A stretch of DNA of 64,000 nucleotides from Bdellovibrio sp. CG22_combo_CG10-13_8_21_14_all_39_27 (GTDB lineage Bacteria > Bdellovibrionota > Bacteriovoracia > Bacteriovoracales > Bacteriovoracaceae): contig PCTW01000082.1 in the NCBI GenBank assembly GCA_002786715.1, forward strand, positions 1 to 64,000. The letters are read 5' to 3'. The notes beneath the pieces were generated by a model. The model saw only the letters and a program-made list of their open reading frames with translations, did no database searches and was not told the origin of the DNA. A program made the position numbers and the translations under genes. Shown piece by piece: positions 22,126 through 40,921 of the stretch; position 1 is the stretch's first letter; each line of letters starts with the position of its first letter.

Positions 22126-22890
22126 TTAATTTCTCGTAACCTTAATCGCCTTAATTCCAGTCGAACGAAAGTCGCTATCCACGCCTTCCACTGAAATGGT
22201 GTTCTCGCCCATATTAAGCGGAACAGCTTGGCAGAAGTATGTTTGAGCGCCCGTTGAAGTACAATAGATTCCATTAGCATTCACAAGATTGAGATCTACC
22301 TGAGTTGTAACCTCGACATCAACAGTTGTCGCTATTGTCGCAAATCCATCAACAGGTGAAGTAATTACCAAAATGGGTTCGGGCAAAGCACCAACTTCAG
22401 GAAGATCTTTATCGCAAAGCTCAGTGCTCACAATAACCATTTCATCCTTAATCTGCGATTGCCCGCAAAGTTTAGAATGACCAATCATCGTCGCCTCGCC
22501 AAACAGCTTGGCATCCTCAAAGACAGCAGCATTGCCATACACTCGAGCATTGCCAAAAACTTGGGCCTGATCGGCAATCACAACTAAGCTGGTACCAAAA
22601 GCCTTGGCCCGTCCATAAACCTCTGCATGCCCTGAGACCACCACATTTTTTCCAATTCTCGCTCTTCCATAGACACGAGAACTCCCCTCTATGCGACTTC
22701 CCTCTTCCACAATGGCACGATCACAAACTTGGGCATCGTAATCAACAAAGCTATCAGTCGAAACAGTGGCCGTCCTGGCAACAAAGCCATTGCCGTAAAT
22801 ATGTCGCTTCCCTAGCGCGCCTCCACACAAGGTAGGATCAGAGGCATAAGCAAAATTGAGTGAAGCGAGAACTAAAATAAAAAATTTCAT
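22126..22890 (-). CDS. Beta-helix operon gene 8: secreted hexapeptide-repeat protein with Ig-like end
   Basis: A 254-aa exported protein (signal peptide ends A-Y-A-S). The cap module shared by the operon runs from Cys22 to Cys56 (C-x33-C, with G-N-G-F-V-A-R-T-A between), followed by hexapeptide repeats to about 165 (V-Y-G-R-A-R, V-S-G-H-A-E, V-F-G-N-A-R) that predict a short left-handed beta-helix. Residues 170-254 are a beta-sandwich of the bacterial Ig/glucodextranase-B kind (I-T-S-P-V-D-G ... G-E-N-T-I-S-V-E-G-V-D). Its ATG overlaps the stop of the preceding gene by one base. It is the last gene of the operon. Confidence 0.82.
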   Translation of the reverse strand: MKFFILVLASLNFAYASDPTLCGGALGKRHIYGNGFVARTATVSTDSFVDYDAQVCDRAIVEEGSRIEGSSRVYGRARIGKNVVVSGHAEVYGRAKAFGTSLVVIADQAQVFGNARVYGNAAVFEDAKLFGEATMIGHSKLCGQSQIKDEMVIVSTELCDKDLPEVGALPEPILVITSPVDGFATIATTVDVEVTTQVDLNLVNANGIYCTSTGAQTYFCQAVPLNMGENTISVEGVDSDFRSTGIKAIKVTRN

Positions 22891-24650
22891 TAGTAATTCC
22901 TATAAGGAAGGGGAATAGAAGGGGGCTGTCTGCTACAGTTTGAAACAGCATAAGTATTTTCAGTTATGCGCTCTTGAAAACACAAAAAGGTACTTTGCAC
23001 TTTGGCCTTACCAGAAACGATGACATTACCAAAGAGAATGGTACCTGCTCTTATTTCGGCCTCGTCTAAAACCATGGCATTTTCAGCGATAAACAAATCT
23101 CCTGAAACTCTAACTTGATCACGCAATTGAGAGCGACCGAGCATCATCAATGTGGCATTGGCCTCAACAGTCACAGAGTCGGTCACAAGAGCATCTTCAT
23201 ACATATTAAAAAGACTATTAATCGTTGCACTTCCCGAGATATGAGAGTTTTGATTCATTGTAAAAGCAGGTGAATTGACAGTTGCAAAACCAGAGATTCT
23301 TGAGTTGCCAGTCATGGTAGAGGTTGATTTAATTTCTTTCGAAGCCCCCCCACTCACAATTGCAAAATCAGTAACAGAAGAGTTTCCTGACATTGCGAAA
23401 AGGTTTGAAACGCTAGCATGACCAGAAACAATACTATCATCTCCCATTTGGACATTTTCTACTTTTGCGTAATCTAAAATTTTTGCTCGATCTCCCGCAT
23501 TTACTGAATCAATGAAAAGATCAATTCCCTCAAAGTAGGCATCGCCATAAAAATATGAACTACTAACTTGTACCGTTCCTAAGATATTTAGTGGGTTTGG
23601 ATTATCAAATACAATATTGACTATTTCAGTGTTCTTGATGCTAATTTGTCCATCTCTCGCATCAATATTTAAAGCATTTCTTGAAATTCTTGAATCAATA
23701 ATTTCGATAGCTCCCGCAAAAACAAGATTTGGACCATTAATATGAGAATTAATAACAACTGTTTTATCTGAAAAGGTTCCATTTTCAATGAATGAAGCAC
23801 CACAGACTTCCATACCTACAGGAATAAAAACACTTGCAGAAACAATTGAATCACTTGAAACGAATCCCCCTCCGTTAGGATGTGGAAGTCCTAAAGCTCC
23901 ATTACATGGAGGAGTACCTGAGTCATCGTCGACAATCGTTACCGTTATATTGCTCGTATTATCTATTACAATATCAGGATCAGAAACTTCAGTTATAAGT
24001 AAATCAAAGGATTCAGTAGTCTCAGGAAGCGAATCATTAATTGAATTAAGAGTAAATGATCCACTAGTTTTACCCTCTAGAATTGTAATACTGCTGGGAA
24101 TTGAAGAAACATCAATACTTGATGCTGTAGCCACATCAAACAATGGCCTAATAAAAATTTCTAAATCTTTTTTTGCAGGTGAATCGAGAAGAACTCCTAC
24201 TTCAACCGCACTCCCCCCTTCTACAAGTTCTATATCGATCTGTTCAAAGCGGACCATTTGATCAGATACCCCAGAGATCAAATTCTTTGTTATTGTATTA
24301 GATTTTTTAGTAAAGGAGTTCGTAACGGTCAAAGTAACTTTGTGAGTGCCGTTTGAATTGTAGATTTTTGTAGGCTTTGCTGTATCGTTCCCATCGATAC
24401 TCCCTTTTCCTCCAAAATCCCATTTGTAAGTCAGCTTAGTAGCTCCAGCTTTATCGGGATTTGAGTCGAATGAACCTGTTGCATCGAAAAAAACTCTTTT
24501 GGTATTTGTTTGATCAATGACGAATTCAAATTTTGCAACTGGGGGCAAGTAACAATTAGTTTTTTCATCATTATCGCAAGCATAAAGATTGCAAATGAAA
24601 CCAGAAATGCCAAATATAAATACTAAAAATATATATTTTAATTCATTCAT
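22890..24650 (-). CDS. Beta-helix operon gene 7: PKD + Calx-beta + cap/hexapeptide helix
   Basis: A 586-aa exported protein with a hydrophobic signal (residues 5-20). Domains in order: PKD (about 35-125, with Y-K-W-D-F-G-G and G-T-H-K-V-T-L-T-V), Calx-beta-like (about 132-243, with I-D-I-E-L-V-E-G-G and ending I-V-D-D-D), then the operon's cap module from Cys249 to Cys283 (C-x33-C around H-P-N-G-G-G-F-V-S), then hexapeptide repeats to about 570. The cargo precedes the helix here, whereas in its sister genes it follows, so the cap is a true module and not merely an N-terminal sequence. Confidence 0.82.
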   Translation of the reverse strand: MNELKYIFLVFIFGISGFICNLYACDNDEKTNCYLPPVAKFEFVIDQTNTKRVFFDATGSFDSNPDKAGATKLTYKWDFGGKGSIDGNDTAKPTKIYNSNGTHKVTLTVTNSFTKKSNTITKNLISGVSDQMVRFEQIDIELVEGGSAVEVGVLLDSPAKKDLEIFIRPLFDVATASSIDVSSIPSSITILEGKTSGSFTLNSINDSLPETTESFDLLITEVSDPDIVIDNTSNITVTIVDDDSGTPPCNGALGLPHPNGGGFVSSDSIVSASVFIPVGMEVCGASFIENGTFSDKTVVINSHINGPNLVFAGAIEIIDSRISRNALNIDARDGQISIKNTEIVNIVFDNPNPLNILGTVQVSSSYFYGDAYFEGIDLFIDSVNAGDRAKILDYAKVENVQMGDDSIVSGHASVSNLFAMSGNSSVTDFAIVSGGASKEIKSTSTMTGNSRISGFATVNSPAFTMNQNSHISGSATINSLFNMYEDALVTDSVTVEANATLMMLGRSQLRDQVRVSGDLFIAENAMVLDEAEIRAGTILFGNVIVSGKAKVQSTFLCFQERITENTYAVSNCSRQPPSIPLPYRNY

Positions 24651-24689
24651 AAAAGTTACTTAAACAATCTGAACAGTAAATTATACTTT

Positions 24690-25439
24690 TTACCAAGGAC
24701 ACTGATTGCCTCCATCGTCGTTCAAAACAAAATCATCAAAAGATGATGAAGTCACACTTTTAATAACAATTTTATCGTCCTTTTTCCTACGACAAAAGAG
24801 AATCGTGGAATCATGTTTCAATACCTGATCCTCAATTTGTTGTCCTGCTCTTGCAAAAAATTTTCTAGGCATAATAATTGATTCATCGTTTCTTAAAAAA
24901 ATCATTTTAGTGTTAGGCAACCATTTTATACCAATAAACAAGATAATCTTTTTTGATTCGACTTCTCTAAAAAAACAACTATCATCCCAAATAGGACGTA
25001 GGCCATCTTCATTAAATATTTTATCAACATCAATTGAAAAATCATTTTTTTGTTTTACAATTTCACCTGTCTGATCGAATTCAATGAAATGGCCTTTTGC
25101 AAATTTAACCCCATTTACAAAAGCATCTTTGGCCAGAATGCCGCATTTGAATTTAAAATTAGGAAAAAAATATGCATTAAAATTCTTATCAATTTCAAAT
25201 TCATCTACTCTAAAATTTATAGGTATTTTTGTTGCGAACCTTAAATCTTTCCCCTGCATTATAATATATGATCCAGCAGGTAGCTCTCCCCCAACAAACT
25301 TAACGCTCTTGTTAATAACTCCATTTTTAAGAGGTAGATCATCATTGTTTAGCTTTTTTTTAGCAACGATAGGATTACAAAAAGCACTAGAGAGAAATAT
25401 TGTAAAGAATAAGATTTTAACAAATATCAATTTTATCAT
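24690..25439 (-). CDS. Beta-helix operon gene 6: secreted protein without the helix module, 249 aa
   Basis: The only gene of the operon lacking the cap and hexapeptide repeats. It has a signal peptide (residues 4-20, S-S-A-F-C-N) and a beta-rich mature part with short turn-type strands (V-K-F-A-K-G-H-F-I-E-F-D) and scattered cysteines. Its ATG overlaps the stop of the preceding gene (ATGA). No family is recognised; its position suggests an accessory role such as folding, anchoring or inhibition of the neighbouring peptidase-bearing protein, which is speculation. Confidence 0.72.
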   Translation of the reverse strand: MIKLIFVKILFFTIFLSSAFCNPIVAKKKLNNDDLPLKNGVINKSVKFVGGELPAGSYIIMQGKDLRFATKIPINFRVDEFEIDKNFNAYFFPNFKFKCGILAKDAFVNGVKFAKGHFIEFDQTGEIVKQKNDFSIDVDKIFNEDGLRPIWDDSCFFREVESKKIILFIGIKWLPNTKMIFLRNDESIIMPRKFFARAGQQIEDQVLKHDSTILFCRRKKDDKIVIKSVTSSSFDDFVLNDDGGNQCPW

Positions 25440-28400
25440 AATAAAAATTCCAGATGATGATGGTAAAGGTGTGTCTTGTCATTAACATATTTGAACACTA
25501 TCCCAGTTTTTTCTAAACTACATACTCCATCTACTTCATTGCATCGAATAGGTCGATCTATGATTGGAACAGAAATAATCCCCCTCCCTCCAACATTAAT
25601 AAGATCAAACCAACCTATGATTGCACCTACTACTATTGAGATATTCCATTTTCCTATATCAATAAAATTGCTCTCATCTTCAGCTCCTCTAGAAATAATC
25701 AAATTTTGAATTAATTTTCCATTTACTTGATTAAATTCTCCAAGAGCTTTAAATCCTAGTCTCAAATCATCTACCCAATCGGCAAGTTTCTTTAATTCAG
25801 GAGAATTCTCTATCTCTCTGTTAAAGACGGCTTGCCTAATAAGATCCTTTCTCTCCAGGTAACGAGCCGACAATTCATTATTTCTAAGACTGTGCGTCAA
25901 ATAAGTTATGTCTAAATTTTTTCCAATCTTATGTCCTGTTTTGTGAGGTCTAAATGCCCCTCCAAATGGGAGTGAGCCATCATTACATTTTAATCTTTTT
26001 GGTAATTCAAGATTCTCGGCAGTAGGAGTTAACATTTTCTTCAAAGTGAGAAATGAATGCCAGGTCAAGTAGCGGTCAATCACATTGCCAAATTCTGGAC
26101 AAGGAATCAACCTACCGTTGTATAAAGGGATTTGATTAAAAAAGACGGGTGCACTTTCTCTTGCCGTTCCATTTTCAATTGTAGAGACCGTAAATAAAAA
26201 ATTCACCTTTGTAACAGGAATTTTATCGACCCTATTTAACCAATCAAGCGCTGGATTGTTTCCAATAGAATCAATAGGCAATTGAACAATCAAATTAACG
26301 CAATTGAACTCACGGCAAGAGAATTCTTCTTTTTGGACAACACTATACTGTTTATTAGTAAATACTCCTTCTGCATCTTTTTTGCCAAAAAATTGGGTTG
26401 TATTCTTATCCTCTTTTTTAGAATCATTTCGCTCAACCGAAAGTCCAAGATCTGCATACTTTTGATTTTTTGGAAACTGCGCCGTTACAGTAAATTCCAA
26501 AAACCACCCTTTATTATAGCTATGAGGTAATGGCCCTTTTGTGCCACTTGGAACAGGAGCTACTGAAGTCAAATCTACACTTGTCGGAAAATACTCACTC
26601 GTCTCATTTCCATGACCATCAATTCTCTTAATTGAATTTGGAATAATTCTTGGTTGATTTTGTTCGAAAACAACACCGACTCCAATTGCTGATCCACAGC
26701 TAGATGAAGGCCCTCTTTTTAATGAAGTGGCACTCATTTCAATTTCAATTTCGATTTCATCTTGCTTAAAGCTCTTTGCTTTTTTTACTTCAATCGTTTC
26801 CCAATGTGAGGTGCTTACAGCATCACCAATTTGTGGAAATTCTTTATCTGCAGGGATGGAGGTTGTAACTCGAGTAAAATCAATCGGAGCTTTCCCAGGA
26901 ACCTTAATAGTTAAATTAACAAGATCTTCGGTTTCTTCACCGATCGTAAAGACTTGGTAAGCAACGATAATTGAATCCTTGTTGGCCGGTATTTTCTTTT
27001 TATAATTCAGCTTGGCAACTTTTCCTACTTTATCAGGAGTAAAGACAATCTTTTCAATCGCAAAATTTGATCTCGGGTCCTGCCCTTTGAGTTGCTTTTC
27101 AAATTTTAGTAAATTCTTGTTCGCTTGTGGCATTGTCTTTGTTGGGATTTCATTAAAAGAGATGATTCTCTCTGAAGTGAACTGAGGAAAAGCGACGACC
27201 AGATCACTTCTGTATTCATCGGCGTATTTTGCAATCAGAAGATAGCCGTCAAAGGGTAGATTTTTAAACTCAAATTCTCCAGAACTTCCAAGTCGAATCT
27301 CTTTATAGAGATCAAACTTTGTGCCTTTTAAGATTATGGTGGCGTTGCTTCGATCAGTAACCCTGCCTTTAATTGTACCTGAACCAAAGTAGATATTGGT
27401 AATCGTGCTGGTGTGTTCGACTCCTGACTCATCGAGAGCGTTAAAGTTGATTTTAAATTCATCATGCAGATCAATCGATTTCTTAAGGAGTTCTTCCATT
27501 GAAATCTTAAGTCTGCCATCTTCAACTCTTGAGATTCCAGAAATATCAAGTCTCGAAGGCAGACCACTACTTTCAACATAAACTTCTAATGCTGATTTAT
27601 TATCTGCGATAGGACTCAAATTCGGAACCAATTCGATGGCGATATCTTCATCACTAATGGGAATAATGCGATCATCATGTCCAATAATTCTTGAACAAGT
27701 GGTATCACCTATTTCTTGTTCACAGTTAACAGTTATTTCAGCGTAACTTGTATTAAAGCCACCAAGCTCATCCGTCACTTTAAGAGCAACGGTAAAAACG
27801 CCAGGGCCTATAAACTGATGGATAGGTTTAGGACCGGTAGCAGTGGTTCCATCTCCAAAATCCCAGTCATAGGAGACGACCATACCATCTTCATCACTTG
27901 AATCAGACCCGTTAAAATTGACTGTAAGATGGTTTTTCTTAGTGGCAAAAACATCGGCCTTAATAAAGGAGATCGGATCAGTGTTTAGCGGAAGTTCGAC
28001 TTCGAGAGGCAAAGTAAGAGAGTCACTCTCTCCATTTTTATCAATTGCCGTCATCTTAACAAAATATTTTCCCACAACTCTATACGAATGAGTCAGCTCC
28101 GACTTTTCATTTTCTCCCTCATCGCTTTGGTCCCCAAAGTCCCAAATGTATCTCAGTGTTAAATAGGAACCATTTCTTTCAGAGCTATCAATTGCATCAA
28201 AGGAGACTTCTCTATTGGGAAAATTGATATTTGATTGATTTCTATTAATTTTAAATTCTGCATAAGGAATCGGACAAAAATCAAATCGATTAAAAACATA
28301 CTCCGCTCTCTCAAGCTTGTTGTCTTTACAGACTCGACCATTGGCCTCGATTCTCACAGTGCCTGCAATGATCGCATTGCCTTGAACTCGGGCATTGTTT

Positions 28401-28801
28401 GAGAGTTTGGCGTAACCGTAGATTTTGGCCTTTTCTCTGACCAGAATATGATTGATTCCACTGGCCTCAAGTTTAGCGCCACCAAAGATTTCAACTTGAT
28501 CTTTTATGGTCACGTTACCCGAAATTTTCGCTCGTCCATAGACTTTAACTTCATCTTCAATTCTTGGAGTATCACTACCTAGTGCTGAGACAATCGCGCG
28601 GTCACAGACTTCGACATTGGGTCCTAAATAAACTCCCGCATCGACTTTAGCGGTTAAAGCGACAAAGCCTCCTGTTGGATTGCCCACTTCATCGTTTGGA
28701 TTGAAGTGCCTCGCGCCCGATTGGTTGTCGCAGTTTCTGCCCCAGCTATTAAAGGAGAGCAGCAGAAGAGAGAGAAATAGAAGAGATCGAGTCTTGTTCA
28801 T
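25436..28801 (-). CDS. Beta-helix operon gene 5: cap/helix + two PKD + carboxypeptidase-regulatory-like + MepA-like peptidase
   Basis: A 1121-aa exported protein. Signal peptide about 1-21; cap module Cys24-Cys66 (longer loop, x41); hexapeptide repeats to about 150; two PKD domains (about 190-360; Y-I-W-D-F-G-D and Y-D-W-D-F-G-D); a carboxypeptidase-regulatory-like beta sandwich (about 475-545; I-K-G-R-V-T-D); a long beta-rich stretch; and from about 947 to the end a region matching the M74 murein endopeptidase pattern: G-G-A-F followed by H957-K-I-G-K-N-L-D964, with a C-terminal H1111-L-Y-H-H-H. Those supply the HxxGxxxD and HxH-type zinc ligands of LAS enzymes. Predicted to cut peptidoglycan or a related cross-link. 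Confidence 0.78.
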   Translation of the reverse strand: MNKTRSLLFLSLLLLSFNSWGRNCDNQSGARHFNPNDEVGNPTGGFVALTAKVDAGVYLGPNVEVCDRAIVSALGSDTPRIEDEVKVYGRAKISGNVTIKDQVEIFGGAKLEASGINHILVREKAKIYGYAKLSNNARVQGNAIIAGTVRIEANGRVCKDNKLERAEYVFNRFDFCPIPYAEFKINRNQSNINFPNREVSFDAIDSSERNGSYLTLRYIWDFGDQSDEGENEKSELTHSYRVVGKYFVKMTAIDKNGESDSLTLPLEVELPLNTDPISFIKADVFATKKNHLTVNFNGSDSSDEDGMVVSYDWDFGDGTTATGPKPIHQFIGPGVFTVALKVTDELGGFNTSYAEITVNCEQEIGDTTCSRIIGHDDRIIPISDEDIAIELVPNLSPIADNKSALEVYVESSGLPSRLDISGISRVEDGRLKISMEELLKKSIDLHDEFKINFNALDESGVEHTSTITNIYFGSGTIKGRVTDRSNATIILKGTKFDLYKEIRLGSSGEFEFKNLPFDGYLLIAKYADEYRSDLVVAFPQFTSERIISFNEIPTKTMPQANKNLLKFEKQLKGQDPRSNFAIEKIVFTPDKVGKVAKLNYKKKIPANKDSIIVAYQVFTIGEETEDLVNLTIKVPGKAPIDFTRVTTSIPADKEFPQIGDAVSTSHWETIEVKKAKSFKQDEIEIEIEMSATSLKRGPSSSCGSAIGVGVVFEQNQPRIIPNSIKRIDGHGNETSEYFPTSVDLTSVAPVPSGTKGPLPHSYNKGWFLEFTVTAQFPKNQKYADLGLSVERNDSKKEDKNTTQFFGKKDAEGVFTNKQYSVVQKEEFSCREFNCVNLIVQLPIDSIGNNPALDWLNRVDKIPVTKVNFLFTVSTIENGTARESAPVFFNQIPLYNGRLIPCPEFGNVIDRYLTWHSFLTLKKMLTPTAENLELPKRLKCNDGSLPFGGAFRPHKTGHKIGKNLDITYLTHSLRNNELSARYLERKDLIRQAVFNREIENSPELKKLADWVDDLRLGFKALGEFNQVNGKLIQNLIISRGAEDESNFIDIGKWNISIVVGAIIGWFDLINVGGRGIISVPIIDRPIRCNEVDGVCSLEKTGIVFKYVNDKTHLYHHHLEFLL

Positions 28802-30100
28802 TTAGATTTCATTTCCTCGATTATAATCTCCAGTTATGAGATTTGCTGTGCCGTGGATCAGTGCCGTTCCATGAATCAAAGTATCGCCTCCTACTTCGGC
28901 ATTCTCAAAGATTTGACCCAGCTCAAAAACTGAAGCTGTGCCATAGACTCTGCCGTTACCGTAAATTTCTGCGTTCCCGTAGATTTTAGCACTATCAGCA
29001 ACCGAGCTGTCATCATAGATTTGCGCTTTCCCTGAAACTTCAGCAGTTCCTCTCACGACACCGCGCCCGTAAACTTGGGCGTGTCCTAAGATTTTCGCAA
29101 ATTCAAAGACATCAGCATTGTCGTAGAGGATTGAGTCACCAGATACTTGAGCATTGTCATGCACTTTAGCATTGCCTCTTACTTTTGCCCTCGCACTAAT
29201 GAGGGCACTGTCAAAGACTTCGGCATTATCAAAAACCTCTGCACGAGAGAGAATTTGAGCATTTCCATAGACTCTAGCATCACCAAAGACACGGGACTTA
29301 TCACTAACAATCGCGTTGTCGTAAATGAGAGCATTGTCTCCAACTCGAGCGAAATCTGAAACAGTAGCATTACCACTAATTAAAACTTCACCGTAGGCAA
29401 TAACATTATCTTTTACCGTTGCCGTATCACCAACTTGAGCAAAGTCATTGAGGATGGCAAAGTCAAAAACTTTGGCAAGTGCGTAGACTTGTGAAAAGTT
29501 ATTAAGAGTTGTTTGCCCGTAAACTTCTGCTGAACCATAAATAACAACTGAGTCATTGAGAGTTACTTTCTCTCTCACAACAGCAGAACCAAAAACTTGG
29601 CAGTCTCCATTAATTATCACTTCATCTCTTACACTAGCGCTGCCATAAACTTGTGCTTCACTTTGAGCAGAAAATTGGACAAGACCTACAATGCTGGAAG
29701 TTTCAAAAATCAAGGGTTCACCTTGAATAAGCAATTCAGTTAAGGTCGAGTTCGCAACCAACTGAGAAGTAATACTCGCTTGATCATAAATTTTGGCATT
29801 GCCAGTAATCGTCATAGGAGCATCAACACTTGTTAGGGTTGCGCTGTTATAGACTCTCGCAAGTCCACTGATGACAATCCTTTGAGCATTATTAGTTGTG
29901 ACAACCACATTGTCTAAAACTTGAGCTTCATCACAAACTTCCGCATCGACGCCAAGATAAACTGTGGCATCGACGGTGGCGGTGTCAGCAACAAAGCCAC
30001 CACCGTTGGCGTGAGTACTTCCTGGTACGCCACCGCAATTGATGGCGTACACAGGCAGAGAGAGAATTCCGAAAAGAGCTACTAAAAATGAATATTTCAC
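28802..30100 (-). CDS. Beta-helix operon gene 4: nearly pure hexapeptide-repeat beta-helix
   Basis: A 432-aa exported protein: signal peptide 1-19 (ending V-Y-A), cap module Cys22-Cys56 (C-x33-C around H-A-N-G-G-G-F-V-A-D-T-A), then about 60 consecutive hexapeptides to the C-terminus (patterns A-K-V-R-G-N, A-Q-V-Y-G-R, A-E-I-Y-G-N). This predicts an uninterrupted left-handed beta-helix of about 20 turns. The start is GTG, with GGAG upstream, and gives the signal peptide; the frame is open a further 72 codons upstream, but that overlaps the preceding gene and is not taken. It directly abuts the next gene with no gap. Confidence 0.85.
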   Translation of the reverse strand: MKYSFLVALFGILSLPVYAINCGGVPGSTHANGGGFVADTATVDATVYLGVDAEVCDEAQVLDNVVVTTNNAQRIVISGLARVYNSATLTSVDAPMTITGNAKIYDQASITSQLVANSTLTELLIQGEPLIFETSSIVGLVQFSAQSEAQVYGSASVRDEVIINGDCQVFGSAVVREKVTLNDSVVIYGSAEVYGQTTLNNFSQVYALAKVFDFAILNDFAQVGDTATVKDNVIAYGEVLISGNATVSDFARVGDNALIYDNAIVSDKSRVFGDARVYGNAQILSRAEVFDNAEVFDSALISARAKVRGNAKVHDNAQVSGDSILYDNADVFEFAKILGHAQVYGRGVVRGTAEVSGKAQIYDDSSVADSAKIYGNAEIYGNGRVYGTASVFELGQIFENAEVGGDTLIHGTALIHGTANLITGDYNRGNEI

Positions 30101-30113
30101 TTTATTCTCCAAA

Positions 30114-31214
30114 TTATAAACCAAAGTACAGACCAGTTGTGTAAGTTGTCGAACCGGTACTAAAGTCGGCAGAGCCGCGAACAATGGCATCACCTGTAAA
30201 AACATTTGTTCCACCAATAATGGCATTTTCATAAACATTAACTTGACCTGAGACTTGAGCCGAATCTTGAATGGTGGCACTTCCACCGATATTAGCTTCA
30301 CCAAAAACTTTTGCATTGTTTTGAATAGTGATTAGCTCACCAACATCGTAAGATGAAACATAAGCACTGCCATAGATCTTGGCGCTATCTTTGATCACGA
30401 CATTTGAATCAATATAAGCTTTGCCAGAGATAGAAATTCCTATTCCATCAATCAGTCCATTCTTAGATAAAATAACAAAAGCTTTATCTCCAATATAAGC
30501 AACTGTTGTCGGAGTCGTTGTTGTAAAACCACCAACTGCTGCATCACCAGTTACCGTCACGGTTCCACTTAAATTGGCCCCTTCTGCAACAAATCCATTT
30601 CCTTGAATAACCACATTGTCTCGGATTTGAGCAGCACTAGTGACATGACCATTTCCTTTGACAACGGCACTTCCACTGACTTTAGCATTGCTAGAGACTC
30701 TTCCATTTTCTTCAATGATAGAACTTCCAGATAAACGAGCTGAACCCAAAACTTGAGAAGTTCCTCTGACAATTGTTGTCTCGCTTAAATGAGCATTTCC
30801 TTCTACAACGGCATTTTGATAAACCTGAGCTGAACCACCGATATCAGCAGAACCTTTAACCACTACATCATCATAAACCAGAGCATTGTCATGAATTTGA
30901 GCAAACTCCGAAACAAAGGCATTTCCATGAATTTTGCCATTATCAAAGACTTGAACGTCGCCAGAGACTGAAGCGTTGCCTTCAACCAAAGCATCATCGC
31001 GCAAGACAACGTCTCCCGTTACAACTGCGGTATCGCAAACTCTAGCGTTGACATCCATATAGACAGAAGCTGCGACAGTGGCGGTATCATGATACTGACC
31101 ACCAGTGCTTCCATCTGGATTAGTATGAGGGAGAAGAGTTCCAGCGTTTGTACAAATTGCAGCATGGGAACTCAAAGTTGCAAAAATTATTGTCATAAAG
31201 AATAGTGTTTTCAT
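30114..31214 (-). CDS. Beta-helix operon gene 3: hexapeptide-repeat beta-helix protein
   Basis: A 366-aa exported protein: signal peptide about 1-18 (S-S-H-A-A), cap module Cys21-Cys60 with a slightly longer loop (x38; H-T-N-P-D-G-S-T-G-G), then hexapeptide repeats almost to the end (A-S-V-S-G-D, V-V-K-G-S-A, A-Q-V-S-G-Q). The repeat register is broken near the middle (about 240-275), which may be a loop protruding from the helix. No separate cargo domain. It is 13 nt upstream of the next gene. Confidence 0.84.
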   Translation of the reverse strand: MKTLFFMTIIFATLSSHAAICTNAGTLLPHTNPDGSTGGQYHDTATVAASVYMDVNARVCDTAVVTGDVVLRDDALVEGNASVSGDVQVFDNGKIHGNAFVSEFAQIHDNALVYDDVVVKGSADIGGSAQVYQNAVVEGNAHLSETTIVRGTSQVLGSARLSGSSIIEENGRVSSNAKVSGSAVVKGNGHVTSAAQIRDNVVIQGNGFVAEGANLSGTVTVTGDAAVGGFTTTTPTTVAYIGDKAFVILSKNGLIDGIGISISGKAYIDSNVVIKDSAKIYGSAYVSSYDVGELITIQNNAKVFGEANIGGSATIQDSAQVSGQVNVYENAIIGGTNVFTGDAIVRGSADFSTGSTTYTTGLYFGL

Positions 31215-31232
31215 GTTAATTCCTTTTAAAAT

Positions 31233-32924
31233 TTAATAAATATATTCAACAAAAATTGGAAGCAATGAAGAAGCTACATCAGAGCGACCTAATGGCCCAG
31301 AGCCCCAGCACATCAACACTCCCTCTGATCCAGCGCAAACTGAATTTAAAGTTGTCCCTAGGGTTGTCGGATTTAAGCCTTGAAGTACAGGAGTCACTAA
31401 GTCAATTCTATTTGTGCCTGATCCAATACCAAGTATGCCTACGTAACCCCAACAGCCCATTTGACCAAAAGCCACCGCACAAACTCCATTATAGCTTGAG
31501 GCTAAGTTGGAGACTGCAGGCAAGGAATTGACTGAAAGAGTTGGAATTTCAGTGGTAGCACCACCATGGCCACCTTGTAGATAAGTATTATTCCCCCAGC
31601 AATAAACTTCTTCATTGTCATTAATGGCACATGAAGAGACCCCTCCGAGTGAAATTGTTTGAACCGAGCCGATACTTACTGATAATGCAGTCGGTGAATA
31701 ATTATCAGTACCTATTATTCCGCTTCCCAATTGACCATAGTTGTTTGAACCCCAACATTGAACAGTGTTATCAGAAAGGACAGCGCAAGAGTGATTTTCC
31801 CCTACAGCAATATTAATCGCCGTCGTGATCCCTGTTGCCGTTGGAATATTTTTATCAATATTTGTTCCATCGCCAAGTTGACCATGACTATTAGCTCCCC
31901 AGCACCAAACACTTCCCGTTGATGATAGGGCACAGTTATGATTAAAACCTGAAACAACTTTTGTGATCGAAGTTAAACCACTTGCCACGACAGGAGTATC
32001 TGAATCGATAATGCTGGCATTACCTAGTTGTCCTGAGCTATTTAGCCCCCAACATTCAACGGTATCATTATTTCGAACGATACAAGTGTGAAATGAGCCG
32101 GTAGAAACGTCAGTAGCATCAAGAATTCCCGCTACCGCATTTTTAAGTTTGATTGTACTCTGAGCTCCTGCGAAAGAAGGAATCCCTAATTGACCAAATT
32201 GATTATTACCCCAACAAATAACCTGTGAGCCATACTGAGATGAACCAATCATACACATATGATGAGAGACTGAACTTTGTGAAAGTTTTGAGATTGAAAT
32301 TGGAGGAGCGCAATGATTCCATCCTCCTGAGATTTCAAAATCAATATTCTCATTATTACATACAACAGCACTTGAAGTGATTTTTCCTTCAGGACCAACG
32401 GTCGCCAAGCCATGCACTGTTGAAGATTCAATATAGCCTCCACCAATTAAGGCGTGACCATAAATTTTTGAAGAGATGATTTTAGAATCACTTATCACTC
32501 TGGCATTTCCATAAATTGTGGAATTATCAATTTGAGCATCATCCTCAATCACTGCATGTCCAAAAATTGAAGTTCCAGTCGTCACGTTTAATGTAGGGAT
32601 GCCAGGAAGTAAAAATCCACGTAAATTGGCAAACCCTCCTACATCAGAATCGTTTATCACAACATTTCCCTCAATTGTTGCAAAGTCGTTAACATTTGAA
32701 TTATTAATAATTTGAGCATTACCAGAAATTTTGGCATAGCCACAAACAGCACTATTACTAGAAACGACAACACTTGGTGCAACATTGGCGGTAATTGCGA
32801 CAAAGCCTCCACCATTGGGATGAGCAAATCCAATGTCACCTGCACATTGGGCCCATGCATTTGAAGTTAATCCAAAAGAGATGAGGGCCAACGCCATCAC
32901 TCCACACTTTTTCAATACATTCAT
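31233..32924 (-). CDS. Beta-helix operon gene 2: cap/helix + RCC1-like beta-propeller
   Basis: A 563-aa exported protein. Signal peptide about 1-25; cap Cys27-Cys61 (C-x33-C around H-P-N-G-G-G-F-V-A); hexapeptide repeats to about 215; then from about 235 to the end RCC1 repeats of about 50 residues, each with H-x-C-x(n)-C-W-G-x-N-x-x-G-Q-L-G (for example V-E-C-W-G-L-N-S-S-G-Q-L-G). The paired cysteines in each blade are typical of secreted bacterial RCC1 propellers, which usually mediate binding. It is 18 nt upstream of the next gene. Confidence 0.87.
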   Translation of the reverse strand: MNVLKKCGVMALALISFGLTSNAWAQCAGDIGFAHPNGGGFVAITANVAPSVVVSSNSAVCGYAKISGNAQIINNSNVNDFATIEGNVVINDSDVGGFANLRGFLLPGIPTLNVTTGTSIFGHAVIEDDAQIDNSTIYGNARVISDSKIISSKIYGHALIGGGYIESSTVHGLATVGPEGKITSSAVVCNNENIDFEISGGWNHCAPPISISKLSQSSVSHHMCMIGSSQYGSQVICWGNNQFGQLGIPSFAGAQSTIKLKNAVAGILDATDVSTGSFHTCIVRNNDTVECWGLNSSGQLGNASIIDSDTPVVASGLTSITKVVSGFNHNCALSSTGSVWCWGANSHGQLGDGTNIDKNIPTATGITTAINIAVGENHSCAVLSDNTVQCWGSNNYGQLGSGIIGTDNYSPTALSVSIGSVQTISLGGVSSCAINDNEEVYCWGNNTYLQGGHGGATTEIPTLSVNSLPAVSNLASSYNGVCAVAFGQMGCWGYVGILGIGSGTNRIDLVTPVLQGLNPTTLGTTLNSVCAGSEGVLMCWGSGPLGRSDVASSLLPIFVEYIY

Positions 32925-32947
32925 CTTTATCTCCTTTTTATCATCAT

Positions 32948-35900
32948 CTACTGACAGATTTCATTATTGGTTAGGGTCTTAAAACAAAGCTTATTATTCT
33001 TTTTGTACATCTCCTTAATAAAGGGCAATTTTTTAATCGCAGAATCTTTCCTTTGAACTTTATCGAAACAATGAACTTCGCCCTCGTTTGTTAAGGAGCA
33101 ATCATCAATCCAATTAATTGGTTCCGTGAGAGAGCGACTCATTTCTTTTCGATTTGAAATGACCGTGTTCATTCCAGTAAAATCACCACACTTTTGGAAC
33201 CCAAAAGCCTTATCAATTTCTGATTTGGCCCTAATTTTGATTGAGCAAGACTCGCCTTCTTGAATTTTTTGGTCGCGACAATCGTTATCGAGTAAAACAA
33301 GATTCTTTGAATCACGCCCCACTAAACTCAACGGCGCACAATCAAGAGCATCAGCAAAACCAATGTTGAAGATTTCGATGATAGAAGTTTCATTCTTTGA
33401 AAGTTTTAAAACTTGAGGTCTTAATAATAGAGTTGGGAAATCGGGATCAATTCCGTTGGCATAGAGATCCCCTTGAATACTTCCGCCTTTTGTACAAGAA
33501 AAAGAAACCTGTGCCGTTCTCTCTCCTAACAGCTCTGAAGGAATGGAAGAAATACTACCTTGGCAAAAATCTCCTGGCGCAAGCTCAGTAACTGAGCTAC
33601 ATGGCTTTAAAAGACTGGTATAATCAATGGAAAATTCAATTGAATTTGAGCCCGTTAATTGTGGATTAGAGCACCCTCTTAAGTATCCCGTTCCATTGTT
33701 TAAGAAAGTAAAAACTCTTTCTGGACTTTGATAACCAACTCCCACATTTTGAAAGTTGAAGGCTTTGGGTGCCATAACTATTGAACTTGGGAGCAATTTC
33801 CCCATAGAATGGAGATTAGCTGTAACGCTTCCACCAATTGAACAAGTTCGTCGCACTTGAGCTTCTTTTTTGGTCAATGATGTCGGCGCCGATTCAATTG
33901 CAAACTGGCAATAGTCGCCTGGCGCAAGATCATTGGTACCGCAGCTTTTTTCACTTAGAGTAATGATAGAAAATTCTGCGGCATCAACTCCTTCAAGCAC
34001 AGGAGCTGAGCAACCTTTAACTGGGCCAGGACCATTATTAATGACTTTGAAAACTTGCTGTTTGGAAATTTGGTTCTCACCGACCACCAAGAAATCATGT
34101 TCGCTTGGAGAGAAGGAAAGAGCAGAATTTCCTAGTTTGGCAAAAGTGGTCAAGTTAGATGAAACAGTTCCACCTATTGCGCATACTCTCTCTAAGGTAG
34201 CACTTTTAAGACCAATCGATTGTGGCTTCGCGTAGACTTGAACAAAACATGAGGAACCGGCATCTAAATCATTAGTTAAGCATTGATCAACTTCAAGTTC
34301 AAAATCAGCAGCATCAATTCCAGTTAATGTAGGAGCGCTACAACCAGAGACTTTCCCTTCACCTAAATTATTAAAGGTTATTTTCTTTAGACTTGAACTA
34401 TTTCCGACAACCGTTGGAGGAAACTGATAGGAAGGAGGATTCACCGTAAGTGATAGAACACCACTGATTGAATTGGCCTTCAGATCAATACTTACACTCC
34501 CACCCAAAGCACAACTATAGTCAAGCGAGGCTACTTTTTGACCAAGAGATGAAGGATGTGCGGTTATTCCAACATGACAGGCTTGAGACGCACCTAAATC
34601 CTCGGTCCCACAGGTATCTCTTGAGATTGAAAAGTCTGAAGCATTAATTCCAGAGAGAACCGGCGAAATACAGCTTCGTGCCACTCCTGAACTTGAATTT
34701 GTGATAACAAGGTCGATCTCTTTAGTCGCTTGACCTGAAACAATAGAACCAAAATTAATCTGTGACTGATTAGCAATGAGTGCACTTTCTTCAAGCTTAC
34801 CTTCAACACTTAAACTGGCCGTCGCATCCCCACCAATGCCACAAGCATGACTAAGTTGAGCAACCTTGACTCCCGTACTTGCAGGTCTTGCTTCAACCAC
34901 AACTTGGCAAGATTCATGAGCATTGAGAGTTGATAAACAACTATCGCTGACAATTGAAAAATCCGATGCGTTAGCTCCTTGAATAATTGTCGCTGAACAA
35001 TTAAGTAGTGAAGCTACGCCATTGTTTGTGAATTTAAAAACTTGTTGCTTCGAATTTTGTCCAGTCGTACTGTCACCAAAGGCAAACGTGGAAGGAGTTA
35101 CACCTTGCTCAGAATTCGCTGATACCCCAGTTACCTTTAACGAGGTTTGTCCAGTTCCGCCAAAACCACAAGTTCTGCTGAGAATGGCATTTTTTTGACC
35201 TAAGCTAACTGGGGCGGCCATGACTTGAACTTGACAAGACTCTTTTGGACCCAAGTCTTGAGTGGAGCATGTCTCTTGAACAATAGTAAAAGAAGTTACA
35301 TCTGCACCCGTTAATAATGGTGCGGAACAACTTCGAGCACTCCCTGTACCTAAGTTCGTAAAGCTTAAATTTAATATTTGAGAAGCATGATTGACTCCAA
35401 TGCTTAAGAAGTCATGTTCCACTTTAGAGAAGCTTAAATGAGAATCTGAACCCTCTGCAATAGCACTTAATTGCATGGATGCTGTTCCACCAATTCCACA
35501 ATCTCTTACAAGACTAGTGCTTTTTGGTCCAATTGAAATTGTTCTTGATTCTATTGCAATCAAACAAACCGATTGTGCACTTAAATTATTTGAAGAACAT
35601 TGATCATCGATGATTGAAAATTCGCTGGCATTTCCCCCAACTAAGCTAGCAGGAGTACAGCTTGAAGCCATCCCTGGCCCATTGTTTCTTACTTTTGCGT
35701 AAAAAACTTGTCCAGTACTTAAGACTTGCACTTTAGGAAATTGATATGAGCTTTGAAGAAAACTTATCATAGGGTTTGCTGATTCTGAAAGTGATTTTAT
35801 ATCGGCAATGGCCTTGCCACCAACAATACATTCTCTTTCAATGCGCGCAGTTTTTGCTCCAAGAGTCGTTGGTGTCGATGCAACTTCGATTTCACAACTA

Positions 35901-38900
35901 TCCATGGCATTCATGTTTGTTGAACACGTCGTCGTTATGATCTGAAATTGATCGGCATCAATGCCGACCAGAGTAGGAGGAGAGCACAGCTTTGATTTCC
36001 CACCGCTGGTGTTCGTGACTTTGAATACTTTGGAAGCTGAAGAATTCCCCATTCCGACTTTAAGGAAATCAAATTGAGCAGGATTAATAGGCATTTTTGC
36101 TATTATAGGAACACCTGTGGCGCTCAATGCACTTGAGATTGTTCCAATTAAGGGACAACTAAAATCTAATGAAGCCACCAGAGCATTAAGGTTCGTAGGA
36201 TGCGCGCTAACGTAAATGTTGCAAGATTGCCCAACATTGAGATGATCAGTGCAATTACTGACAGAGGTTAAGGCAAAATCACTAGCATTTAATCCAGATA
36301 AGCCTGGAGCAGAGCAAGAGGTAATATCGATTGGGCCAGGATTTGAAAGAGTAAAAGTATGCTGAGTTGAATAAGCTCCCAACGTAACATCACCAAAATC
36401 ATAAGCAAGTGGTGTCATGTTAAGAGTAGGATTTGCTGATTCAGCAATCACGGATGATTCGAGGCTGCCATTTGAACAAGTTCTGCGAAGAAGTGTAGAC
36501 TTCGATCCAAGGGTTGTTGGAATTGCTCTTAAATCGACAGTACATGATTGTCCTATTCCCAATGATGAAGTACATGTATCGCTTCCTGATACAATCTCAA
36601 ACTCCAAATTATGACCTGTTTCAAGAGTGTAAATCCCACAGCCAGTTGCTACAGCATCACCTGTATTTGTAAGGGTTACTGTCAAGTTTGGCGACGCTTG
36701 ATTATTGGCCACATAACCAAAATCAATCGGAGCAGGAGCTGTGCTTAAAATTGGGCCAATCCCCGTTCCTGTTAATGAAGCGGAAATCACTCCACCGATA
36801 GTGCAAGTTCGCTCTAAAGTGGCCGATTTAAGCAAGCGTGTCGTTGGAGAAAATTGGACATTAACAGAACATGTTCCCCCTTGAGGAGACATATTTCCAT
36901 CGGGACAGTTCACGATACTTAATGAGAATTGATCGGCGTCTACTCCAGAGATTATGGGAGTTGTACAACCGATTGCCGTTCCATCTCCTGTATTTGTTAT
37001 AGTAAATAATTGTGGTGTCGAACTCTGAGCGACCTCTATAGTTCCAAAGTCAAATGATAAAGGGGCTATTTCCAGATTAGGACTTACTCCTGTACCAGAA
37101 ATAGTTGAGACGATCTCACCACCCACGGTACAATTTCTTCTCAAATTAAGGGACTTCACTCCACCACTTTGTGGAATAAAATCGAGAGCAATATCACATG
37201 TGCTGTTCTGACCGACATTATTCGTTCCACAACCATCAAGAGAAATGGCAAAATCGCTAGTATCTCCATCAATAGTGGGCAAAGAGCAACCAGTAGCACT
37301 TCCAAAACCTGAGTTAGAAATAGTGAAATTTTGAGTCAATGAAGATCCAAGTGAAACGCCACCATAATCAAAAGCAAGAGGAGAAATACTCAATTCAGGA
37401 GTATTTGGTCTTGATTCAGCAATTATGCCATTACTCAGCGTCTTAACTGTTCCCCCAATGAGACATGTTCTTGTCAGCGATGCTTTAATAATCCCAAGTT
37501 GGTTAGGATTCGTCGTTACATCTACGGTACAAGTAGACATGGCCGGTAGGTCACTACTGCCACAATTATCTGCAGTAATTAAAAAATCATCAAAGTTTTT
37601 GCCAGTTAAATAAACCACTGAACATTTCTGTGCATCAGCATTGCCAAGGTTACTGATGGTAAATGTTTGCGTGTTATAGGTTGAGCCAATCGGCGCTGGT
37701 CCGAAATCGTAACTCACGGGAGAAAAAGATAATTCTGGCGTTGGAGATAAAACTTGAGATTGAACTTCAAGAACAGTTGTAACGAGGCCACCATTAACAC
37801 AATTCCTCGTCAAGTCGGCCGTTCTTAGATCAATTCCGGTCGGCTTTGCGCGAACATAGAGAGAACATTGACCAATATTTGCAGGAAGATCAGAAGCACT
37901 GCAATCATCGGCAACAATCTCAAACTCGCTTGGATGAGCTCCAGTTAAAGTAGCAGGAGAGCAGCCTGTAGCATCAGTGCCTCCGATATTATTAATCTTG
38001 ATTTCAAAAGTATCAGAAACTTCACCGATCAAGAGATTTCCAAAATCTAAATTTTCTGGAGAAATTTTAATAACTGGTAGTTGGTCCTCTCCAAATATGG
38101 TTAAACCATTGGCCACAGTACTTGCCACACCACCTTGAACACAGTTTCTAAATAAAGTGGCACTACGGGTTCCAATATCTTGGGCCGTCGCTTGCACCGA
38201 AACATCACATGACTGACCAGATGCCAATGAAGTGGTACCGCAACCATCACTCACAATAATAAAATCGGTAGGATTCGCCCCCAAGATGACGGGAGCTGAA
38301 CAAAATTGGGCCAATGATCCAGAATCATTTCTAAATTTGAAGACTTCGACTGCTGAAGGAACAGATAAGTTATATGTTCCATAATGAAAACTCGAAGGCG
38401 TGACATTAAGAACGGGATTTAGGGCAGAATAAGTGATTCCTTCTTTAGTCGTAGAAGCGGTACCTGAAGATGTGCAAGTGCGAGTTAAAGTCGCTTTCTT
38501 TTCTCCACTTGAAGTTGGTTTAGGTGCAATACGAACTTCGCATTCTCCAACTCTATCTCCAATCACTAATTCATCAAGCAAAGGTGTCGATTGTCCGGTT
38601 CCTGAATGTAAATAAGCACGAAATTTAAATTGTCCATTCGGGCCCAGCAAAGATATTTTTTGAGATATTGTTTGTGCGGTTGATGTTTGTGCGAGACTTT
38701 CATTGGAAAGTGTCCAAGCAAAACCATTCCAATATTTCCAAGTAACACCATTGTCGTCAGATAATAGGTATCGAATGAGATCTCCATTAATATATGTCGC
38801 GCGCTCTTTAAAATTCTTTAACGCTGAAGATAAAGAAATAGCAGTCGCGAGTTCCACATAAGGATTGTCCTGCGGATATGAGAGCCAATCTGACGCTACT

Positions 38901-40864: not shown

Positions 40865-40921
40865 TCTGTTCTCCATTAAAGGAAGTAAATTTTTTTGTAA
40901 AAAACTACTCAATTCATCCAT

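What the first reader, a model, noticed from the sequence alone, without database searches (positions are those of the whole stretch)
25436..25963. MepA-like murein endopeptidase domain at the end of a beta-helix/PKD protein
The C-terminal 175 residues of operon gene 5 have G-G-A-F, then H957-K-I-G-K-N-L-D964, then H-L-Y-H-H-H near the end, matching the HxxGxxxD and HxH zinc ligands and the local context of M74 MepA enzymes. A murein-cutting head on a surface fibre-type protein would make sense for attack on prey or for self-wall remodelling.
Basis: partly seen in the sequence, partly recalled or inferred. Interest (0 to 1): 0.7.

Follow-up and report, generated by a model that had tools for sequence, protein, structure and literature searches.

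The report
Likely wall-cutting toxin with immunity partner
The end of this large secreted bacterial protein is a distant relative of the cell-wall-cutting enzyme MepA, and together with the small secreted protein encoded right after it, it looks like one more pair in a family of swappable antibacterial toxins and their protecting partners.

Summary
Residues ~885-1121 of the 1121-aa gene (25436-28801, minus) form a domain related to the zinc peptidase MepA (family M74). Nine C-terminal domains from six genomes keep H953, H957, G960, D964, H1111, H1114 and H1116 (window numbering). A profile of relatives made without the window finds this gene and no other of 565 window ORFs (E 3e-15); the relatives match an M74 profile at P 2.5e-9. 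The window protein itself stays below Pfam's M74 cut-off, and the fold was not shown (single-sequence model failed).

Nine of nine tested tip domains are followed at once by a small same-strand ORF; 7 of 9 starts are signal-peptide-like, against 1 of 20 ordinary M74 genes. Three relatives' genomes hold truncated C-terminal copies beside partner genes, a fourth three tandem partners: the layout of CDI/Rhs toxin-immunity modules. Three of the proteins share their N-terminal domain with Rhs toxins. Best reading: a murein-cutting toxin tip on an LbH/PKD fibre, gene 24690-25439 its exported immunity protein. Activity, toxicity, immunity and delivery are inferred.

The parts
25436..28801 (-). Gene 5 of the run: 1121-aa protein with a signal-peptide-like start (by eye)
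   Evidence: Pfam PKD_4 5e-32, Hexapep 1.2e-6
28352..28672 (-). LbH / hexapeptide beta-helix region, residues ~44-150
   Evidence: Hexapep (51-73) and weaker YdcK, Bactofilin and acyltransferase-type LbH matches
27728..28270 (-). Two PKD domains, residues ~178-358
   Evidence: PKD_4, 2 stretches; blastp to the PKD bodies of the G233 and G255 proteins
25439..26149 (-). C-terminal M74-like LAS zinc-peptidase domain, residues ~885-1121
25910..25984 (-). First motif, N940 to D964 (ND..P.GG....H953...H957..G960...D964); predicted zinc ligands H957 and D964
   Evidence: invariant in 9 of 9 rows
25454..25471 (-). Second motif H1111-x-x-H1114-x-H1116; predicted third zinc ligand H1116
   Evidence: invariant in 9 of 9 rows; lines up with HxxHxH of M74 in the global profile alignment
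24690..25439 (-). Gene 6: 249-aa protein with a signal-peptide-like start, overlapping gene 5 by 4 bases; proposed exported immunity protein; no LbH match, unlike the other seven genes of the run
   Evidence: no Pfam match at E<=1; GC 0.301 against 0.397 for the window
22126..40921 (-). Run of eight same-strand ORFs, seven with LbH-type repeats; probable operon (not tested)
   Evidence: ORFs; LbH-type matches, for 22890-24650 only weakly in Pfam (0.011) but by blastp to an LbH protein

Best explanation
Gene 5 is the fibre-borne toxin of a polymorphic toxin-immunity pair. A Sec-type signal takes it across the inner membrane; the LbH and PKD parts form a stalk; the C-terminal tip is a LAS-type zinc peptidase, distantly related to MepA, that would cut peptide bonds in the murein of a neighbouring cell (rival or prey), with H957, D964 and H1116 as zinc ligands and H1111/H1114, perhaps H953, in the active site. 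Gene 6, started from an overlapping ATG and itself exported, would bind and block the tip in the producer's own periplasm and so protect self and kin. Shown here: the domain, its conserved residues, its sequence kinship with M74, the adjoining small gene, and in relatives the truncated tip copies, the duplicated partners and an N-terminal domain shared with Rhs toxins. Inferred: enzyme activity, the bond cut, toxicity, inhibition by gene 6, passage through the outer membrane, and the target.
For: Domain and residues. M74 kinship; an M74 profile of 18 relatives' genes also ranks the window gene first of 565 ORFs, E 0.0034. Partner rule: 9 of 9 tip copies have a same-strand ORF of 172-336 aa starting -53 to +9 bases from the stop, 7 of 9 passing a crude signal-peptide rule; of 20 ordinary M74-type genes 7 have any such ORF of 150 aa or more within -60 to +120 bases and 1 passes the rule. 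Truncated copies: residues 254-704 and 477-706 of a 706-aa protein, 1508-1957 of a 1966-aa protein, the last 55 aa of a 1725-aa protein, with partner paralogues beside those of G230 and G233, and three tandem partner paralogues in G271. In G233 the two toxins are 76% identical over their length and the partner copies compared 47-64%, so partners change faster. N-terminal domain A2 in 27 places in 18 of 368 genomes; of 16 of these fetched 4 were tested and all 4 carry the Rhs-associated core above cut-off, one with a Tlde1 tip. The window domain falls with the tip type in a tree of motif blocks (split support 0.90). GC falls from 0.46 at the start of gene 5 to 0.29 at its end and 0.30 in gene 6. 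Precedents, read in passages: orphan cdiA-CT/cdiI modules (PMC3150448); Bd3459/Bd3460, a DD-endopeptidase and its periplasmic self-protection protein (PMC4686830).
Against: No activity, toxicity or binding was tested. The window has no truncated copy and a single partner; its case rests on analogy with relatives. Weak matches to gene 6 exist in other genomes (20 of 368 at E<=0.05 with its own, best other 8.0e-5), but in the 7 regions fetched around such matches no ORF with the LAS motif pair was seen. In this window 17 of 47 genes are followed by an ORF passing the same signal rule and 27 of 47 by any ORF, so a secreted gene there is not surprising by itself. The partners fall into three families and several proteins without a match to each other, gene 6 among them. 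The window protein has no A2 domain. The LbH-associated LAS proteins L066, L067, L068 and L199 carry the domain internally, not at the tip. The GC drop is small or absent in relatives. The structure model was useless. One of 60 column-shuffled controls gave a high score.
Confidence: 0.7

Rival explanations
1. Self-directed murein enzyme: the tip cuts the producer's own wall to let the fibre through or to remodel the envelope; gene 6 is a regulator or chaperone, not an immunity protein.
For: The gene lies in a run of exported LbH genes; LAS proteins with an internal domain and LbH exist; no tip toxin was seen beside the weak matches of gene 6 elsewhere.
Against: Truncated tip copies with partner paralogues and the N-terminal domain shared with Rhs toxins are toxin-immunity hallmarks; ordinary M74-type genes rarely have an exported ORF behind them (1 of 20).
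Confidence: 0.15
2. Predation enzyme with self-protection: the fibre cuts prey murein during attack and gene 6 protects the predator, as Bd3460 does against Bd3459.
For: Precedent read in passages (PMC4686830); the architecture is compatible.
Against: Truncated cassettes and partners that diverge faster than the toxins fit competition with relatives better; whether this organism preys on bacteria was not tested.
Confidence: 0.1
3. The LAS fold is kept but inactive and serves as a murein-binding or adhesive end.
For: LAS relatives with other roles are known (Hedgehog N-terminal domain, recalled); the window row is only 22-27% identical to the other rows of A1.
Against: The six histidine/aspartate positions are invariant in 9 of 9 rows.
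Confidence: 0.05

Closest known systems
MepA / peptidase M74 (Pfam PF03411; PDB 1tzp, 1u10)
   Same: GG, then H-x(2,3)-H-x2-G-x3-D, then HxxHxH, in this order; profile-profile P 2.5e-9; best PDB hit
   Different: Window protein gives no Pfam M74 match; the domain is the tip of a giant secreted protein, in the relatives with long insertions between the motifs, and a small exported gene follows. The genome has its own true M74 gene (C24, E 6.3e-63)
CDI and Rhs polymorphic toxins with orphan CT/immunity modules (PMC3150448, passages; PMC3482391, passages)
   Same: C-terminal toxin with a small gene at once behind, truncated C-terminal copies with partner copies in relatives, and N-terminal domain A2 of three relatives shared with Rhs proteins
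   Different: No Rhs match in the window protein; PKD and LbH stalk; a murein-acting tip whose partner must be exported. The words MepA, murein, PKD and Bdellovibrio do not occur in the held part of PMC3482391 (first 300,000 characters)
MepA-like DD-peptidase domains in WHIX type VI secretion effectors (PMC12135965, Table 2, passages)
   Same: MepA-like domain predicted as an antibacterial toxin (13 proteins listed there)
   Different: There at the N-terminus of WHIX proteins delivered by type VI secretion; here at the C-terminus of a protein with a Sec-type signal
Bd3459/Bd3460 endopeptidase and ankyrin self-protection protein (PMC4686830, passages)
   Same: Murein DD-endopeptidase gene followed by a gene for its exported inhibitor
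   Different: Bd3459 is an acylated, penicillin-binding-type enzyme (type recalled) and Bd3460 an ankyrin-repeat protein; no truncated cassettes mentioned in the passages read

Membership tests
Peptidase M74 (PF03411) | Score above the Pfam cut-off (25 bits) | tested here: not met
   No match for the window protein or its tip at E<=1 or E<=10; 3 of 7 full-length relatives match at 13.7-17.4 bits, 4 of 7 not at E<=0.05
Peptidase M74 (PF03411) | HxxGxxxD and HxxHxH motifs in order, with a histidine before the first | tested here: met
   H957-x2-G960-x3-D964 and H1111-x2-H1114-x-H1116. The preceding histidine stands four residues before H957 in the window and four other rows, three before in the other four rows and in the genome's own M74 gene
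Peptidase M74 (PF03411) | LAS fold and zinc site | tested here: inconclusive
   single-sequence model, pLDDT 32.5
Peptidase M74 (PF03411) | D-alanyl-diaminopimelyl endopeptidase activity | not testable with these tools
   bench assay
Peptidase M15 (VanY, PF02557) | profile similarity | tested here: not met
   probability 0.1-0.2% against 30 relatives' VanY sequences; M74 against VanY also fails by this method (0.1-0.7%), so distant kinship is not excluded
Polymorphic toxin-immunity system | C-terminal toxin-like domain with a small gene at once behind | tested here: met
   window and 8 further copies; controls 7 of 20 any ORF, 1 of 20 with signal rule; window background 27 and 17 of 47
Polymorphic toxin-immunity system | truncated C-terminal copies with partner copies | tested here: met
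   in relatives G230 and G233; G255 has a truncated copy behind the first partner, but the contig ends there. Not seen in the window
Polymorphic toxin-immunity system | same N-terminal part joined to different tips | tested here: met
   A2 domain with LAS tips, Rhs bodies and a Tlde1 tip; the window protein has no A2 domain
Polymorphic toxin-immunity system | toxicity neutralised by the cognate partner | not testable with these tools
   bench assay

The most novel reading that the evidence does not exclude
A so far undescribed polymorphic toxin branch in this phylum, in which Rhs bodies and PKD/LbH fibres exchange N-terminal and tip cassettes, with an M74-like murein-cutting tip family and fast-diverging exported immunity proteins (possibly built on a shared beta-repeat), used for contact-dependent killing or kin discrimination.
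Probability: 0.35. Interest if true: 0.75.

Novelty: new variant of a known kind. Interest (0 to 1): 0.58.

Why it matters
It would add a murein-peptidase tip family with dedicated exported inhibitors to the polymorphic toxins, show that PKD/LbH fibres can carry tips otherwise expected on Rhs or CdiA bodies, and give a short gene pair (tip of gene 5 and gene 6) on which toxicity and immunity can be tested directly.

Tried and rejected
Rejected: kinship with M15/VanY as the closer family. Rejected for the window: a teneurin-TTR-like domain at 476-526 (Pfam CarboxypepD_reg E 0.022), not borne out by a profile of four relatives.

Own-genome flanks (L145, L146) were fetched and not examined.

Left as a lead: a repeat-like pattern in the partner proteins (16 hits in 15 sequences, shuffles mean 2.9, maximum 7 of 200); the pattern was read off the same sequences.

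Controls and dropped rows: of 60 column-shuffled M74 alignments 59 scored 18.0 or less in local mode; one (seed 11) scored 132, also anomalous in global mode with a single aligned column, which I take for a numerical artefact (a first run of 50 shuffles showed the same outlier). The M74 alignment used 18 of the 20 M74 matches (L104 and L107 left out); the VanY alignment all 30 loci held, of 39 matches; two earlier VanY runs held only 2 and 1 sequences and are not used. The first partner control parsed 18 of 20 loci with 1 positive; the repeat parsed 20 of 21, L107 being cut off, with 1 positive; three of these genes are 580-720 aa long, so not all are stand-alone. G255's truncated copy was not in the partner test because the contig ends; G230's second one has a partner fragment about 0.27 kb further on. 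The tree holds 33 proteins; L195 and the shortest truncated copies of G230 and G233 did not yield both blocks and fell out.

Full report
What is there. The window's minus strand carries eight adjoining ORFs between 40921 and 22126, seven of them with LbH or hexapeptide-type repeats. Pfam and NCBIfam do not name the tail, and PHROGs gives one match of E 0.25.

It is a real domain. Searched against 368 genomes of the phylum, the last 302 aa matched other large proteins, best E 8.1e-6 (16 of 368 genomes at E 0.1 or better, own genome included, several surely by chance). Nine aligned rows, the window and eight relatives from five other genomes, keep N940 D941 P945 G947 G948 H953 H957 G960 D964 S1037 G1039 H1111 H1114 H1116. 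The eight other rows find the window gene at E 4.8e-15, the next of 565 ORFs at E 1.1; a profile of nine relatives' C-terminal regions aligned without the window finds it at E 3e-15, the only hit at E 1 or better. With the nine-row profile, ten near-complete places in five genomes were found, and weaker matches in many more (81 of 368 genomes at E 0.001); many of the weaker ones lie in frames of 230-310 aa and look like ordinary M74-type genes, which I did not check one by one.

It is M74-like. The best solved structure for the profile is MepA, 1tzp, E 0.0038; the second hit, a Mediator subunit at E 0.0084, shows how weak that is alone. Five of nine members match Pfam M74 weakly; the window member does not. 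Profile against profile, the eight relatives match 18 M74 sequences of the phylum with probability 96% and P 2.5e-9 over the first motif; in the global alignment of the nine-row profile the HxxHxH motifs line up as well. Thirty VanY sequences give nothing. MepA's zinc ligands H113, D120 and H211 are recalled; the paper was not held, but PMC3927764 (passages) says that MepA has both the HxH and the H...D motif. The structure prediction on the single sequence is uninformative (pLDDT 32.5), so the fold is not shown.

What surrounds it elsewhere. In G271 one tip protein is followed by three tandem partner genes, about 36% identical to each other, and a second tip protein by a fourth partner of that family. 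In G230 a 706-aa protein is followed by a partner, a copy lacking the first 253 aa, a second partner, a third C-terminal piece and a partner fragment. In G255 a 1966-aa protein is followed by a small gene and then by a 452-aa copy of its C-terminal 450 or so residues, where the contig ends. In G233 a partner overlaps the stop, then come a partner remnant, a 94-aa tip remnant and another partner copy. Nine of nine tested tip copies have a same-strand ORF starting -53 to +9 bases from the stop; seven of nine pass a crude signal-peptide rule, and the two others have hydrophobic starts without an early K or R. Of 20 ordinary M74-type genes seven have any such ORF and one passes the rule. As a caution, 27 of 47 window genes are followed by an ORF and 17 of 47 by one passing the rule, because this window is rich in exported proteins. 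Truncated C-terminal pieces with partners behind full-length toxins are what was described for CDI and Rhs (PMC3150448, passages).

Link to Rhs toxins. The N-terminal domain shared by the two G233 and the G255 tip proteins (A2) occurs in 27 places in 18 of 368 genomes. I fetched 16 of these. Ten end in an Rhs core by eye; the four tested all exceed the cut-off for the Rhs-associated core, and one of them ends in a Tlde1 domain, recalled as a murein-acting effector type. Two carry a LAS-type motif pair, L195 at the tip and L199 internally; three are cut off by a contig end and L194 is partly masked. So one N-terminal part is joined to different bodies and tips. The window protein has no A2 domain but an LbH start; LbH, in the same protein or the next gene, and LAS also occur together in L066, L067, L068 and L199, where the LAS domain is internal. 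In a tree of the two motif blocks (33 proteins) the window falls among the tip type, separated from internal and ordinary M74 domains with support 0.90; inner branches are weak.

Mechanism. The most likely reading is a fibre-borne murein-peptidase toxin with gene 6 as exported immunity protein. The partner has to be exported because the enzyme passes the producer's own periplasm and would act there in kin. A precedent for an exported inhibitor encoded behind a murein endopeptidase is Bd3459/Bd3460 (PMC4686830, passages). Against it: weak matches of gene 6 in other genomes had no LAS-motif ORF in the seven regions fetched, and gene 6 matched none of the other partners by blastp. GC falls from 0.46 at the start of gene 5 to 0.29 at its end and 0.30 in gene 6 against 0.40 for the window, which would suit an acquired cassette, but in relatives the drop is small and in one the partner is richer than the toxin.

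Novelty. MepA-like toxin domains are already listed among WHIX type VI effectors (13 proteins, PMC12135965 Table 2, passages), and polymorphic toxins with orphan modules are well known. Searches of the paper library for 'MepA' + 'polymorphic toxin' + 'immunity' + 'effector' (4 papers), 'Bdellovibrio' + 'polymorphic toxin' + 'immunity' (10 papers) and 'Bacteriovorax' + 'Rhs' + 'toxin' (3 papers) listed no paper whose title or shown abstract describes this arrangement; of these I read passages of PMC12135965, PMC10433427, PMC12419801 and PMC4686830 only. Hence: new variant of a known kind. No tool names the organism; that it belongs near Bdellovibrio is my guess.

Noticed in passing
window 22126-40921 (-): Eight-ORF run of exported-looking proteins, seven with an LbH module (often with H-x-N-G-G-G-F-V near its start) joined, by eye or Pfam, to choice-of-anchor-like repeats (2657 aa), RCC1-like repeats, PKD, Calx-beta-like or glucodextranase-B domains; perhaps a set of surface fibres on one scaffold.
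   Followed up: partly
L066 (G069), L067 (G210), L068 and L199 (G211): A second architecture: PKD proteins with an internal LAS domain and LbH in the same protein or the next gene; in L067, L068 and L199 a further secreted-looking gene of 334-387 aa follows, in L067 with the start of a similar one behind it.
   Followed up: partly
L002 1078-2480 (own genome, C66): A 287-aa M74 relative (25.1 bits, just over the Pfam cut-off) with a 184-aa signal-peptide-like ORF overlapping its end; a possible second enzyme-inhibitor pair, or a simple operon.
   Followed up: partly
L187, L192, L193, L196: Large Rhs proteins with the A2 N-terminal domain, each with a small ORF behind; L192 and L196 also carry PKD and teneurin-like TTR, NHL and YD-shell domains. 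Tips include Tlde1 (L192) and, by eye, HExxH-type sequences.
   Followed up: partly
L059 13672-16001 (G233:C51): Genes that by eye look like conjugation components lie about 4.5 kb behind one tip toxin; the toxin may travel on a mobile element.
   Followed up: no
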